Positions 14,551 through 18,081 of a DNA stretch of 38,134 nucleotides are shown in pieces. The notes below the pieces were generated by a model, which was not told the origin of the DNA, did no database searches, and saw nothing but the letters and a program-made list of their open reading frames with translations. Origin of the DNA: Chloroflexi bacterium HGW-Chloroflexi-9 (GTDB taxonomy: Bacteria; Chloroflexota; Dehalococcoidia; UBA2979); the NCBI GenBank assembly GCA_002840675.1, contig PHBR01000006.1, forward strand, positions 1 to 38,134, in the 5' to 3' direction. Position numbers and translations under genes: made by a program. Position 1 is the first letter of the stretch. Every line of letters begins with the position of its first letter.

Positions 14551-15159
14551 GTGGAGGACGTCGCCGTCGCCTCACCGCTGGTCGTCGTCCTCACGGGCCC
14601 CTCGGGTGTCGGCAAGGATGCCGTGGTGAACCGCGCGCGTGACCTGGGCGTCCCGCTGGAACGCCCGGCGACCATGACCACGCGCGCCCCGCGCCCCGGC
14701 GAGATCGAGGGCGTCCACCATCTGTTCGTGACCCGCGATGCGTTTCTCCGCAACGTCGCCACCGGCGAACTGCTGGAGCACGCGGAGGTGTACGGGAACC
14801 TGTACGGGGTGCCCCGTTCCTCCGTCCGCGCCGCGCTCGCGACCGGCCACCATGTGGTGATCCGCGTGGACGTGCAGGGCGCCGAGTCGCTCCACGACCT
14901 GCTCCCGGGCGCGCTCTTCATCTCGCTCGAACCGTCCACCCTGGACGCGTTGCGGGTGCACCTGGAGGAGCGCGGTACGGAGGGTGCGGGCGAGGTGGAG
15001 CGCCGCCTGGCGATCGCCGCCGCCGAGATCGAACGCGCCCGCACCTTCTGCCGGCCGCTGGTGAACGCGGAGGGCGACCTGGACGCCACCGTCGCCGCCC
15101 TCGTCGCGCTCCTGGAGGCGGAACAGACGCGCCCGGACCGCGCGGTGGTGCGGATCTAG
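14551..15159 (+). CDS. gmk: Guanylate kinase
   Basis: This gene encodes 202 residues and makes the enzyme that phosphorylates GMP to GDP with ATP. The P-loop is GPSGVGKD. The GMP-binding segment TMTTRAPRPGEIEGVHHLF, the FLE-type GELLEHAEVYGNLYGVP and RVDVQGAESL are all in family order. Start is GTG 5 nt after the remA-like stop, so the pair is cotranscribed. The core lid region is somewhat degenerate compared with enterobacterial enzymes but key residues remain. Confidence 0.92.
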   Translation: MEDVAVASPLVVVLTGPSGVGKDAVVNRARDLGVPLERPATMTTRAPRPGEIEGVHHLFVTRDAFLRNVATGELLEHAEVYGNLYGVPRSSVRAALATGHHVVIRVDVQGAESLHDLLPGALFISLEPSTLDALRVHLEERGTEGAGEVERRLAIAAAEIERARTFCRPLVNAEGDLDATVAALVALLEAEQTRPDRAVVRI

Positions 15160-15199
15160 GGGCGCTTCCGGCGACCTGGCGGCCGACCGCGGGCGTTCG

Positions 15200-15229
15200 T
15201 TGACAGCGCGATTCCGGTAGACGTAACGT
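15200..15229 (+). promoter_or_regulatory. Promoter of the trp operon
   Basis: A perfect -35 TTGACA (15200-15205) is followed after 18 nt by TAACGT (15224-15229), placing the start of transcription near 15236, just ahead of the T-box. It is the only consensus -35 I see in the window. Confidence 0.6.
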
Positions 15230-15236
15230 GGCCGTC

Positions 15237-15554
15237 TGATCAATCGCGTACAGAGTGACGCTGATCGGGAATAGTAGGCCGCTTCGCGGGACTCAGAGAG
15301 CCGGGGCAAGGTGAGAGCCCGGCGTCCGCCAGCAGCGGTTGAATGGACCCGTGAGTCCCGGCCCGAGGCCCTCGATCCATCGAGGGAGGTAGGCGTCGGC
15401 GGTGTGGGCGCCGTTATCCATGCCCAGGCGATCGCCACCACGGGGTACCGGGGCGGGCCGTCGCTGGATGAGCCTCCACCCCTGCGGGCGGAGGGAATTG
15501 TGGGTGGCACCGCGAGGACCATCGCCCCACGTGTACGGGGTGGTGGTTTTTTTT
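15237..15554 (+). promoter_or_regulatory. T-box riboswitch, Trp-specific (UGG specifier)
   Basis: This is a classic transcriptional T-box that binds uncharged tRNA and permits readthrough. Stem I elements are the AGTA motif at about 15273-15276, AGAGAGCCGGGG with GGTGAGAGCCCGG forming the distal arm (about 15296-15323), and the specifier loop GAA-TGG-ACC at 15341-15349 with Trp codon TGG at 15344-15346. The loop is bracketed by helices GCCGCT/AGCGGT and CGGG/CCCG. The T-box sequence GGGTGGCACCGCG starts at 15502. Its TGGC matches a GCCA 3' end, agreeing with the G discriminator of tRNA-Trp. The terminator follows. It controls trpE and the genes after it. Confidence 0.93.
15519..15554 (+). terminator. 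T-box intrinsic terminator
   Basis: A 10-bp stem with two G-U pairs (15519-15528 with 15537-15546, arms CCATCGCCCC and GGGGTGGTGG) is followed by eight T residues at 15547-15554. It is the only hairpin in this window with a long U tract. The upstream arm directly follows the T-box sequence, as needed for a switch between antiterminator and terminator. Confidence 0.92.
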
Positions 15555-15591
15555 GTGGGCCGGAGCCGGCGAGATGACGAGGGAGCGAAGG

Positions 15592-15696
15592 ATGAGCAGG
15601 CATCACCGTCCGAGCGCGCAGACGCGACACGGGCAGTGGTCATGGTGGTGGCGCGGGCGCGTCACCCACCCCACCTTTGTGGTCCTCGGAGCCTGA
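15592..15696 (+). CDS. Trp-rich leader peptide upstream of trpE
   Basis: This is a 34-codon open frame placed after the T-box terminator. AGGGAG at 15580-15585 is six bases before the ATG, an excellent ribosome site. Residues 16-20 read W-S-W-W-W (TGG TCA TGG TGG TGG at 15637-15651), while the rest is ordinary. The TGA at 15694-15696 is one base before the trpE ATG, and the trpE Shine-Dalgarno lies inside its last codons. The Trp codons overlap a hairpin (15648-15665, GTGGCGC/GCGTCAC). No second terminator separates it from trpE, so it should act on translation: ribosomes would pause at the Trp run when charged tRNA-Trp is scarce. The mechanism is inference; the frame, site and codons are seen. 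Confidence 0.8.
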   Translation: MSRHHRPSAQTRHGQWSWWWRGRVTHPTFVVLGA

Positions 15697-15697
15697 C

Positions 15698-17164
15698 ATG
15701 ACCTACTCACCCGAACTCACCGACGTCCGCCGCATGGTGGGGCGCGGCAACATCGTCCCGATCTATCGCGAGGTGCGCGCGGACCTGGAGACGCCCGTCT
15801 CCGCCTACCTGAAGGTGGCGCGCGGCCCGTACTCGTTCCTCCTAGAGTCCGTCGAGGGGGGCGAGCGCCAGGGGCGCTACTCCTTCATCGGCACGGAGCC
15901 GTACCGCGTCCACTCCGCCACGCACGCGGAAGGCGACCCCTTGAACGTGGTGCAGGAGGAACTGGCGCGCTTCAAGTCCGTGCAGGTGCCGGGCCTGCCG
16001 CGGTTCCACGGCGGCGCCGTGGGCTACCTGGGCTACGAGGTGGTCACCCACTTCGAGCCGCGCGTGCCGATCACCGGTCGGGACGTGCTGGGCGTGCCGG
16101 AGTCGTGGCTGATGTTCACCGACACCCTGCTCGTGTTCGACCACCTGAAGCACAGCATCAAGGCCGTCGCCCACGTCCGCCTCGATGGCGACGTGGACGC
16201 CTCCTACCGCGCGGCGCAGCGCCGCATCGACGAACTGGTGGAGCGGCTGGCGATGCCGCTGGGGGCGCTGCCGTACGTGCCGTTCTCCGGCGTGCGCGGC
16301 GACGAGGTGCAGTCGAACTGGGAGCACGAGGACTTCCTGGGCGCCGTCCGTCGCGCCAAGGAGTACATCACCGCCGGCGACATCATTCAGGTGGTGCTCT
16401 CGCAGCGACTGTCGCGCCGCACCGGCGCGCACCCGTTCGAGGTCTACCGCAGCCTCCGCGCGATCAACCCGTCGCCCTACCTCTTTTTCCTGCGCTTCGA
16501 TGACACGTACCTGGTCGGCTCCTCGCCGGAACTCCTCGTGAATATCGAGGAGGGCGGCGTGGAGGTGCACCCGATCGCCGGCACGCGCCGCCGTGGCGAG
16601 ACGCCGCTGGACGACGAGCGCCTCGCCGAGGAGTTGCGGCACGACCCGAAGGAGATCGCAGAGCACGTCATGCTCCTGGATCTGGGTCGGAACGACGTCG
16701 GCCGCGTCTCGGAGCCGGGCAGCGTGGCGGTGAACCAGAAACTGGACCTGGAGTTCTACTCCCACGTCATGCACCTGGTGAGCAACGTCACGGGCCGCCT
16801 GCGTAAGGACATGACCGCTTACGACGCACTGCGCGCCGCGTATCCGGCGGGCACGGTCTCCGGCGCGCCGAAGATCCGCGCGATGGAGATCATCGCGGAA
16901 CTGGAGTCGGATCAGCGCGGCCCGTACTCGGGTGGGGTCGGCTTCTTCGACCTGTCGGGGAACATCGAGACCTGCATCACGATCCGGACACTGGTGATGA
17001 AGGACGGCATGGCCCATGTGCAGGCCGGCGCCGGCATCGTGTACGACTCCGATCCGCAGAAGGAGTACGAGGAGTGCTGGCAGAAGGCCCGTGCGCTCCT
17101 CGCCGCCCTCGACGATGCAGAGCGGGGCGAGGGCGCCGCGCCCGCCGGAAGCCTGGGGTACTAG
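15698..17164 (+). CDS. trpE: Anthranilate synthase component I
   Basis: This gene encodes 488 residues of the large subunit, which makes anthranilate from chorismate using ammonia passed from TrpG. LLES at residues 48-51 is the tryptophan feedback-binding motif. The C-terminal chorismate-binding half has DIIQVVLSQRL, NPSPYLFFLRF, GSSPELLV, HPIAGTRRRG, LDLGRNDVGRVS, SGAPKIRAMEI and GPYSGGVGFF, with IETCITIRTLV near the end. The ATG at 15698 has CGGAG seven bases upstream, inside the leader peptide end. Normal length. First gene of the operon, controlled by the T-box and probably by the leader peptide. Confidence 0.97.
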   Translation: MTYSPELTDVRRMVGRGNIVPIYREVRADLETPVSAYLKVARGPYSFLLESVEGGERQGRYSFIGTEPYRVHSATHAEGDPLNVVQEELARFKSVQVPGLPRFHGGAVGYLGYEVVTHFEPRVPITGRDVLGVPESWLMFTDTLLVFDHLKHSIKAVAHVRLDGDVDASYRAAQRRIDELVERLAMPLGALPYVPFSGVRGDEVQSNWEHEDFLGAVRRAKEYITAGDIIQVVLSQRLSRRTGAHPFEVYRSLRAINPSPYLFFLRFDDTYLVGSSPELLVNIEEGGVEVHPIAGTRRRGETPLDDERLAEELRHDPKEIAEHVMLLDLGRNDVGRVSEPGSVAVNQKLDLEFYSHVMHLVSNVTGRLRKDMTAYDALRAAYPAGTVSGAPKIRAMEIIAELESDQRGPYSGGVGFFDLSGNIETCITIRTLVMKDGMAHVQAGAGIVYDSDPQKEYEECWQKARALLAALDDAERGEGAAPAGSLGY

Positions 17165-17166
17165 TC

Positions 17167-18081
17167 ATGGCAGAGTCACAACTCGCCTCGGTCGGCGTCC
17201 TCGTGCGTGAGGACGGCAAGGTGCTGATGGTGCGCCACCCCAGCGGCCCGTTCGCCGGGAAGTGGTCCATGCCACTCATTGGCGTGCACGACATGGAGAC
17301 CGCGGAGGCCGCCCTGGAGCGCATGCTCCGGGAGATGCTGCATGTGCAGCCCGGGCCGTACGAGTTCCTGGACACGCTCTACCTCGGTGGTTCCGGTGGC
17401 GAACGCTTCATCGGCAACGTCTTCACCTGCGTCGACTGGACCGGCGACCCGCGCTTCGCGCGCGAGGTGTTCGACGACGCGATCTGGCTGTCGCCGTCCG
17501 AGCCCGGTGGCCTGGAACTTCTGCCCGAGGTGCGCGAGTTCCTCCGCACCTCCTTCGAGGCGGAGACCGGCGTGATCGCCGCCGTCGAATACGACTCGGC
17601 TTCGCTGGCGCAGGAACTGGCGGACGCGCGCGAGGGACTGCTGGCTGCGTACGACGCGATCCCGTCCGACCTCCGGGTGGAGGTGCTGGAGGAGGGTGGC
17701 TGGTCACCGCTGGACGCGCTGACGCACGCCGCGGACGCGGAGGCGTACTACATCGCCGAACTGCGCCGCTGCCTGGACGAGCCCGGTCGGGTGTGGGTGC
17801 CCTTCAACGGTGGCCAGTGGGGCGACATGCACCGCCTCTACCCCGCGCAGGGTGAGGCGGACGTCATAGTGCGGATGGAGCAGGTGCGGCAGGAGACGCT
17901 GCTCTGGCTCAAGTGGCAGGGCCCGGACACGCTGCGCGCGTACGTGAGCCACCCGGAGCGCGGCGTCACCCAGGCCGGTGGCCGCGTTGCGAAGGTGGCC
18001 ACGCACGACCGCGAACACGCCGAACAACTGCGGCGGATGTGGCAGACCGCCACCATCCGTGCCGCCCTTGACCCGCAGTAG
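17167..18081 (+). CDS. Nudix-like / DinB-like fusion protein within the trp operon
   Basis: This gene encodes 304 residues in two parts. Residues ~5-125 have the Nudix fold pattern ([33 protein letters not shown]), but the Nudix box is degenerate: G39 and R55-E56 are present, while the catalytic EE is replaced by H59-V60, so hydrolase activity is doubtful. Residues ~145-300 resemble a DinB four-helix bundle with the metal triad H187 (LTHAADAE), H280 and H284 (HDREH), and the helix [13 protein letters not shown]. DinB proteins include thiol S-transferases and isomerases. The ATG is 2 nt after the trpE stop and trpG follows by 14 nt, so it is made with the tryptophan enzymes. Its role is unknown. 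Confidence 0.75.

What the first reader, a model, noticed from the sequence alone, without database searches (positions are those of the whole stretch)
15200..15700. Two tryptophan sensors in series before trpE: T-box plus Trp-rich leader peptide
Seen: a full T-box with UGG specifier, T-box sequence and U-tailed terminator (15237-15554), followed by a 34-codon frame with AGGGAG ribosome site and W-S-W-W-W, stop 1 nt before the trpE ATG, with the trpE ribosome site inside its last codons. Known: in Bacillus subtilis the anti-TRAP gene rtpA has a T-box followed by a leader peptide with three Trp codons that controls translation. Here the same logic appears on the biosynthetic operon itself, with no TRAP-type step visible. 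Inference: readthrough depends on uncharged tRNA-Trp, and trpE translation depends on ribosome pausing in the leader, giving a steep AND-type response. A hairpin at 15648-15665 overlaps the last Trp codon, and TCCGAG (15609-15614) could pair with CTCGGA (15685-15690) over the trpE ribosome site.
Basis: partly seen in the sequence, partly recalled or inferred. Interest (0 to 1): 0.87.

Follow-up and report, generated by a model that had tools for sequence, protein, structure and literature searches.

The report
Double tryptophan sensor before trpE
In one family of uncultured Chloroflexota bacteria, the tryptophan-making operon is preceded by two tRNA-Trp sensors in a row, a T-box and then a short tryptophan-rich leader peptide that runs into the trpE start, an arrangement so far best known from a regulatory gene of Bacillus subtilis.

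Summary
A T-box (RF00230, 54 bits, E 6e-11) with UGG specifier and U-tailed terminator is followed by a 34-codon frame (M..QWSWWWR..LGA*) that stops 1 nt before trpE. It is not chance. In the window's family (uncultured Dehalococcoidia), 30 of 41 genomes with readable DNA before trpE carry a UGG T-box before trpE or trpS-trpE. In 29 of these 30 a short frame follows with 1-5 Trp codons (27 have two or more). In-frame TGG is 82, against 22 and 12 in the other frames. In 24 of 29 the stop lies within 1 nt of, or past, the trpE start; in 24 of 29 the last Trp codon lies 46-68 nt before it. No T-run marks a second intrinsic terminator, and TRAP was not found (0 of 44). Of 98 other Chloroflexota read, 34 have the T-box motif before trpE, none followed by a multi-Trp leader. 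In three genomes trpS sits between T-box and leader.

Best reading: the T-box controls transcription and the leader then controls trpE translation, as at B. subtilis rtpA, but on the biosynthetic operon itself. The hairpin/anti-SD details are not supported: modelled stalling does not free the trpE site. So the sign of the second step, hence AND logic, is inferred.

The parts
15200..15229 (+). promoter-like site TTGACA - 18 nt - TAACGT before the T-box
   Evidence: sequence; TTGAC found upstream of the T-box in 22 of 29 leader-bearing genomes, each followed by a TA-starting hexamer read by eye (of the 7 without, some stretches did not reach that far, not checked one by one); the strict sigma-70 scan did not list it
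15252..15532 (+). T-box leader (RF00230): stem I, specifier loop, antiterminator
   Evidence: 54.0 bits, E 6e-11
15344..15346 (+). UGG specifier (Trp)
   Evidence: position in the Rfam alignment; GAA-UGG in 30 of 30 trpE or trpS T-boxes of the family (28 by script; G007 and G013 read by eye); at that place the family's ileS T-boxes read ATC in 11 of 12 (one CTC) and thrS T-boxes ACC in 8 of 8, by eye
15502..15514 (+). T-box sequence GGGTGGCACCGCG
15517..15554 (+). intrinsic terminator hairpin with 8-T tail
   Evidence: fold and sequence; the simple consensus scan did not list it
15580..15585 (+). leader ribosome site AGGGAG
   Evidence: sequence; purine-rich stretches before many of the 29 leaders, read by eye
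15592..15696 (+). 34-codon Trp leader peptide MSRHHRPSAQTRHGQWSWWWRGRVTHPTFVVLGA
   Evidence: max in-frame Trp count 4, reached by 0.2% of 500 shuffles; conserved in the family
15637..15651 (+). control codons Trp16, Trp18-Trp20 (TGG TCA TGG TGG TGG)
15688..15691 (+). trpE ribosome site GGAG inside leader codons 33-34
   Evidence: sequence; SD-like site before trpE in 27 of 29 leader-bearing genomes, one of them only GGTGG
15698..17164 (+). trpE, anthranilate synthase component I (first gene of the trp operon)
   Evidence: TIGR00564 554.6 bits

Best explanation
This is a two-stage tRNA-Trp sensor on the trp operon. Stage 1: a transcriptional T-box with UGG specifier; uncharged tRNA-Trp stabilises the antiterminator and RNA polymerase reads through the terminator. 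Stage 2 exists only on read-through mRNA: a short leader frame with Trp codons whose end lies on the trpE initiation site. When Trp-tRNA is charged, ribosomes finish the leader and terminate on the trpE ribosome site, occluding it. When it is short they stall, mostly 46-68 nt upstream, and leave the site free, so trpE is translated. Transcription and translation of trpE then both need poor tRNA-Trp charging. Shown: the parts, their conservation and position, no sign of a second intrinsic terminator, TRAP not found. From established knowledge of the families: how a T-box works. Inferred: that the leader is translated, that ribosomes stall at the Trp codons, and that stalling raises rather than lowers trpE translation.
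For: T-box with UGG. In 29 of 30 T-box-bearing family genomes a leader frame follows with 82 in-frame TGG against 22 and 12 in the other frames and 21 expected from composition; frames were picked by hand with Trp content in view. Test without picking frames: the maximum Trp count of any ATG/GTG frame ending near trpE exceeds shuffles, Fisher p 1.7e-12 over 13 groups, one genome each (the trpE starts that bound the regions were set by hand). In 11 ungapped within-genus pairs, not independent, 28 of 31 Trp codons are kept against 238 of 368 other residues, and substitutions show no third-position excess: frame and Trp codons matter, not the peptide. Stop within 1 nt of or past the trpE start in 24 of 29; last Trp codon 46-68 nt before the start in 24 of 29. 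No T-run of 4 or more between leader start and trpE in 29 of 29; SD-like site before trpE in 27 of 29. In G004 and G028 the T-box precedes trpS (TIGR00233) and the leader lies between trpS and trpE. TRAP 0 of 44. Precedent: anti-TRAP is controlled by a T-box and by tRNA-dependent ribosome stalling (PMC11255114 passages; PMC4027176 passages).
Against: No expression or ribosome data. An ATGA stop/start overlap usually gives positive coupling (established knowledge), which would make stalling lower trpE translation. Modelled stalling does not open the trpE site: at the last Trp codon it opens by more than 1 kcal/mol in 3 of 29 and closes by more than 1 in 8 of 29, and against shuffled leaders 8 of 29 have z below -1 and 1 above +1. 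Five leaders stop 22-42 nt before trpE, and two (G012, G013) have one Trp codon and no SD for trpE. G060 has the T-box without a multi-Trp leader. For 7 of 30 genomes the Trp count is not beyond the 5% level of shuffles taken alone.
Confidence: 0.58

Rival explanations
1. Positive coupling: ribosomes that finish the leader reinitiate at trpE (ATGA overlap). The leader senses Trp in the opposite sense to the T-box, cutting trpE translation only when Trp is so scarce that ribosomes stall; together a band-pass.
For: Stop/start overlap of 4-17 nt in 21 of 29, 16 of them exactly 4 nt; G012 and G013 lack an SD for trpE; in G000 and G002 a stall at the last Trp codon closes the trpE site by 7-8 kcal/mol.
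Against: 27 of 29 have their own trpE SD-like site; closing by a stall is not seen in sister G001, and 21 of 29 have z of -1 or above; lowering an enzyme of Trp synthesis when Trp is lowest is physiologically odd.
Confidence: 0.2
2. Structural translation attenuation: stalling at the Trp codons refolds the leader and frees a sequestered trpE ribosome site.
For: A hairpin over the Trp codons is in the minimum-energy fold of the window.
Confidence: 0.12
3. Second transcriptional step: leader translation governs Rho-dependent or other termination before trpE.
For: The leader shows no translational RNA switch; Rho sites were not scored here.
Against: No T-run of 4 or more between leader start and trpE in 29 of 29, so no sign of an intrinsic terminator; the placing of the stop on the trpE start would be unexplained.
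Confidence: 0.07
4. The frame is a chance frame or relic without function; only the T-box acts.
For: The peptide sequence outside Trp codons is weakly constrained; G060 lacks a multi-Trp leader.
Against: 82 against 22 and 12 in-frame TGG, shuffle test, recurring stop and Trp-codon placing in 12 genera.
Confidence: 0.03

Closest known systems
rtpA (yczA) leader of Bacillus subtilis, anti-TRAP (Chen and Yanofsky 2003 and 2004, cited in PMC11255114 and PMC4027176, of which I read passages; the two originals were not read)
   Same: T-box for tRNA-Trp, and tRNA-dependent ribosome stalling that controls translation of the next gene; that the stalling occurs in a Trp-codon leader after the T-box is recalled and fits the title of the 2004 paper
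   Different: Here the target is trpE, first gene of the biosynthetic operon, and TRAP was not found; leaders of 18-54 codons mostly overlap the trpE start, whereas the B. subtilis leader is short (recalled, about 10 codons) and ends before the rtpA ribosome site (recalled); different phylum
T-box before trpE in Dehalococcoides (Wels et al. 2008, PMC2494555, passages)
   Same: T-box for trpE in Chloroflexota
   Different: No leader peptide mentioned in the passages read; in the 34 of 98 non-family Chloroflexota with the motif, the T-box sequence sits 60-202 nt before trpE with no multi-Trp leader after it
Classical trp attenuators of Corynebacterium and Streptomyces (PMC1262725, passages)
   Same: Leader peptide with double or triple UGG codons before a trp operon
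   Different: Those act through terminator/antiterminator hairpins after the leader; here the terminator belongs to the T-box and lies before the leader
Cys leader peptides of mycobacteria and LEU element of Actinobacteria (PMC1262725, passages)
   Same: Amino-acid-rich leader without obvious terminator before a biosynthetic operon
   Different: Other amino acids; no T-box in front is mentioned in the passages read

Membership tests
T-box leader (RF00230) | covariance-model match with stem I, specifier loop and antiterminator | tested here: met
   54 bits, E 6e-11, full model 1-219; below Rfam gathering score 93, as in all 44 family genomes searched (0 of 44 over it)
T-box leader (RF00230) | specifier codon matching the regulated amino acid | tested here: met
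   UGG in 30 of 30; other T-boxes as internal control: ileS ATC in 11 of 12, thrS ACC in 8 of 8, read by eye (18 of the 20 genes checked)
T-box leader (RF00230) | intrinsic terminator mutually exclusive with antiterminator | tested here: met
   terminator hairpin with 8 T; overlap of its 5' arm with the antiterminator read from the alignment
T-box leader (RF00230) | response to uncharged tRNA | not testable with these tools
   needs in vitro or in vivo assay
Amino-acid leader peptide | short frame with ribosome site and clustered codons of the product amino acid | tested here: met
Amino-acid leader peptide | conservation of frame and control codons in relatives | tested here: met
   29 of 30 T-box-bearing family genomes; 28 of 31 Trp codons kept in 11 pairs
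Classical transcription attenuator | terminator/antiterminator pair downstream of the control codons | tested here: not met
   no T-run of 4 or more between leader start and trpE in 29 of 29
rtpA-type tandem T-box plus translational leader | T-box and Trp leader in series on one transcript | tested here: met
   order and strand in the DNA; that they share a transcript is inferred
rtpA-type tandem T-box plus translational leader | leader stop beside the ribosome site of the regulated gene | tested here: met
   24 of 29 within 1 nt of or past the trpE start; 5 of 29 stop 22-42 nt before it
rtpA-type tandem T-box plus translational leader | stalling at Trp codons raises translation of the downstream gene | not testable with these tools
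   accessibility modelling does not show release, but occlusion by a ribosome is not captured by it
rtpA-type tandem T-box plus translational leader | regulated gene is anti-TRAP in a TRAP-bearing genome | tested here: not met
   gene is trpE; TRAP PF02081 in 0 of 44 family genomes
Structural SD-sequestering attenuator | stall-dependent release of a closed ribosome site | tested here: not met
   (thermodynamic model only)

The most novel reading that the evidence does not exclude
The two sensors point in opposite directions: the T-box turns transcription on as tRNA-Trp charging falls, while the leader, coupled to trpE by a stop/start overlap, shuts trpE translation when charging falls so far that ribosomes stall. 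TrpE output would then be a band-pass of Trp supply, a logic I do not recall for any amino-acid operon (not searched in the literature).
Probability: 0.18. Interest if true: 0.85.

Novelty: new variant of a known kind. Interest (0 to 1): 0.63.

Why it matters
Tandem transcription and translation sensing of one tRNA is, to my knowledge, described for one regulatory gene of Bacillus. Here the same pair guards a biosynthetic operon through most genera of a family in another phylum, with a natural series of variants (T-box direct, T-box plus leader, T-box-trpS-leader-trpE, and one genome where the T-box seems lost). That makes the question of what the second sensor adds testable by comparison and by reporter fusions. 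It also shows that GC-rich T-boxes can fall under Rfam's gathering threshold.

Tried and rejected
Rfam gathering scan alone: it misses the T-box, so a targeted E-value scan was needed.

Promoter/terminator consensus scan: listed nothing in 15100-15800, not even the U-tailed hairpin.

Structural switch: free and stalled accessibility of the trpE site in 29 leaders, then against shuffled leaders (repeated because one search had given DNA letters to the folder; the result is the same). No support.

Codon-position test for coding constraint: no third-position excess in 12 pairs, so the peptide is not an ordinary conserved protein.

TRAP: 0 of 44, with B. subtilis ringing among the 14 control genomes. 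The genomes are incomplete drafts.

Wider occurrence: 58 other genomes of the class and 40 of other classes were read upstream of trpE. They are a part of what was found: the class search matched 300 of 393 genomes and the phylum search 111 of 161. The T-box was sought there by its sequence motif only, and leaders only as frames of up to 60 codons with WW, W.W or three Trp; single-Trp leaders would be missed. Motif in 19 of 58 and 15 of 40. The Trp-bearing frames listed in these 34 start before the T-box sequence, and none starts after it.

Covariance-model support: of the 30 family T-boxes, 27 have an RF00230 match at that place. G005, G010 and G019 do not and rest on specifier and T-box sequence motifs. 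In one search 14 of 16 loci matched, the two misses being G019 and G005.

Literature: searches listed no paper whose title or abstract start describes a T-box plus Trp leader on a trp operon. I read passages only, of six papers. One of them (PMC2965389) speaks of T-boxes and leader peptides replacing each other, not of both in series, in the passages seen. Two papers that could mention it, Gutierrez-Preciado 2009 and Vitreschak 2008, are not held.

Errors corrected: minus-strand loci were read in the wrong orientation, redone; translated wrong frames, redone; L101 was a two-base placeholder and was dropped. The 29 leader frames and trpE starts were chosen by hand from the list. One search does not choose frames but uses those trpE starts; there G060 (genus g9) was counted as a group of its own beside 12 genera.

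Full report
OBSERVATION. The window lies in a 2.5-Mb draft genome, 82% complete. Between a guanylate-kinase-like gene (best NCBIfam matches, below their cut-offs) and trpE there is a T-box: RF00230 at 15252-15532, 54 bits, E 6e-11 in a targeted scan, with UGG in the specifier loop, the sequence GGGTGGCACCGCG and a hairpin ending in eight T. Its score is below the Rfam gathering score. So is that of every T-box match in the 44 genomes of this family (0 of 44 over cut-off), so the low score goes with the family and is no sign of a doubtful match. Behind the terminator an AGGGAG site precedes a 34-codon frame, MSRHHRPSAQTRHGQWSWWWRGRVTHPTFVVLGA, which stops 1 nt before the trpE ATG.

SPECIFICITY. 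Twenty other T-box loci of the family were read. Of 18 whose gene was checked, 11 are ileS and 7 thrS (the ileS pieces are cut and so below the whole-protein cut-off); L204 and L192 read as ileS and thrS by eye. At the position where the trpE T-box carries TGG, the ileS T-boxes read ATC in 11 of 12 (L198 reads CTC) and thrS T-boxes ACC in 8 of 8, all by eye. The trpE or trpS-trpE T-box carries TGG in 30 of 30 family genomes (28 by script, G007 and G013 by eye). For 27 of the 30 RF00230 matches at that place; G005, G010 and G019 rest on motifs.

CONSERVATION. TrpE was searched in 44 family genomes and found at E 1e-100 or better in 41. Upstream DNA of all 41 was read. Eleven have no T-box there: the genera g5, g8, g10 and g17, and G016. 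Thirty have one. In 29 of these 30 a short frame follows, in 12 genera, 18-54 codons long, starting with ATG or GTG, with 1-5 TGG codons (two have one). In-frame TGG total 82 against 22 and 12 in the other frames and 21 expected. The frames were chosen by hand with their Trp content in view, so repeats the test without choosing frames: the highest Trp count of any ATG/GTG frame that ends near trpE, against 500 dinucleotide shuffles of each region. It is reached by 5% or fewer shuffles in 23 of 30 genomes. The seven others are G013, G014, G018, G027, G033, G060 and G061. Fisher's p over one genome for each of 13 groups (12 genera, and G060 apart) is 1.7e-12. G060 has the T-box but no multi-Trp leader.

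WHAT IS CONSTRAINED. In 12 same-length pairs, substitutions show no third-position excess. In 11 pairs, not independent, 28 of 31 Trp codons are kept, against 238 of 368 other residues. All leaders within g1 have 34 codons, within g9 38, within g13 37; in g2, g4, g7, g11 and g12 lengths differ. The stop lies within 1 nt of, or past, the trpE start in 24 of 29, in 16 of them as a 4-nt overlap; in 5 it lies 22-42 nt before. The trpE start was set by me where several are possible (G015 is doubtful). The last Trp codon is 46-68 nt before the trpE start in 24 of 29. This is the pattern of a control region: frame, Trp codons and position matter more than the peptide.

A NATURAL SEPARATION. In G004 and G028 the T-box stands before trpS (TIGR00233 over cut-off) and the Trp leader stands between trpS and trpE. 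G013 has the same order (trpS by eye) with an 18-codon, one-Trp frame. There the T-box can govern both genes and the leader only trpE. This argues that the leader is a separate device.

DISTRIBUTION. Outside the family, upstream DNA of 58 genomes of the class and 40 of other classes of the phylum was read; 19 and 15 have the T-box motif before trpE, and none has a multi-Trp frame beginning after it (search by motif, see Tried and rejected for its limits). Named records for the family's TrpE are uncultured Dehalococcoidia and Chloroflexi (some carry doubtful labels such as Dehalococcoides mccartyi or Thermoflexus). T-boxes at trpE of Dehalococcoides are in print (PMC2494555, passages). The simplest history is an old T-box at trpE with the leader gained in this family; no tree was built.

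MECHANISM. The leader lies after the T-box terminator, so it would be made only on read-through. There is no T-run of 4 or more between leader start and trpE in 29 of 29, so nothing points to a second intrinsic terminator. TRAP was not found (0 of 44). An RNA switch that frees the trpE site on stalling is not supported: the opening cost of the trpE site falls by more than 1 kcal/mol in 3 of 29 and rises by more than 1 in 8 of 29 when a ribosome is placed at the last Trp codon, and against shuffled leaders the mean z of release is -0.65. In the window itself the stall closes the site by about 8 kcal/mol, which counts against derepression by RNA folding; sister G001 shows no change. What remains is the ribosome itself. 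The trpE ribosome site lies inside the leader frame in most; a ribosome that completes the leader ends on it, and one stalled at the Trp codons is far enough upstream to leave it free. That is the logic of rtpA as I recall it; the passages read say only that AT translation is regulated by tRNA-dependent ribosome stalling. 27 of 29 have their own SD-like site before trpE, as occlusion requires. But an ATGA overlap also permits reinitiation, which would give the opposite sign. I put occlusion ahead because both sensors then agree, and keep coupling as the main rival.

KNOWN OR NEW. Each half is known, and the tandem is known at rtpA. New, as far as the searches go, is the tandem on a trp biosynthetic operon, in Chloroflexota, without TRAP, with the leader overlapping trpE, and with the variants above. 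I file it as a new variant of a known kind.

Recounting changed: shuffle test 23 of 30 (first written 22), promoter-like site 22 of 29 (first written 21), the exact wording of the specifier control, and the covariance-model support (27 of 30). One search was repeated.

Noticed in passing
L025 (genome G016), about 150 nt before trpE: The T-box body is missing; a TTGACA/TAGCCT promoter-like site is followed at once by a frame with Gly-Trp-Trp-Arg, the hairpin GGACCATCGC/GCGATGGTCC with TTCTGT, and a frame that by eye is open into trpE. It looks like a deletion that joined promoter, Trp codons and old terminator, perhaps a newly made classical attenuator or a TrpE extension.
   Followed up: partly
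L033, L060, L032, L034 (genus g10): Relatives without T-box have a short frame with a single Trp codon upstream of trpE (for example MTRGKFSSLLSSRRWLAS), possibly a remnant leader (read by eye).
   Followed up: no
L206, L207, L208: T-box with UGG before trpS, followed by trpE in the same direction (G004, G028, G013).
   Followed up: yes
L056 (genome G060): T-box kept but the leader region holds GC-rich repeat-like sequence and no multi-Trp frame.
   Followed up: partly
L198 (genome G012): T-box before an ileS gene whose specifier position reads CTC instead of ATC, by eye.
   Followed up: no
window 17164-18081: A frame with a weak NUDIX match in its first part lies between trpE and trpG inside the trp operon.
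   Followed up: no
L002 (own genome, contig C43): The only other T-box listed in the window's genome, 33.8 bits, stands before ileS (TIGR00392, 466 bits on a cut piece).
   Followed up: yes
window 15200-15229 and relatives: TTGACA promoter-like site before the T-box; TTGAC in 22 of 29 leader-bearing genomes.
   Followed up: partly
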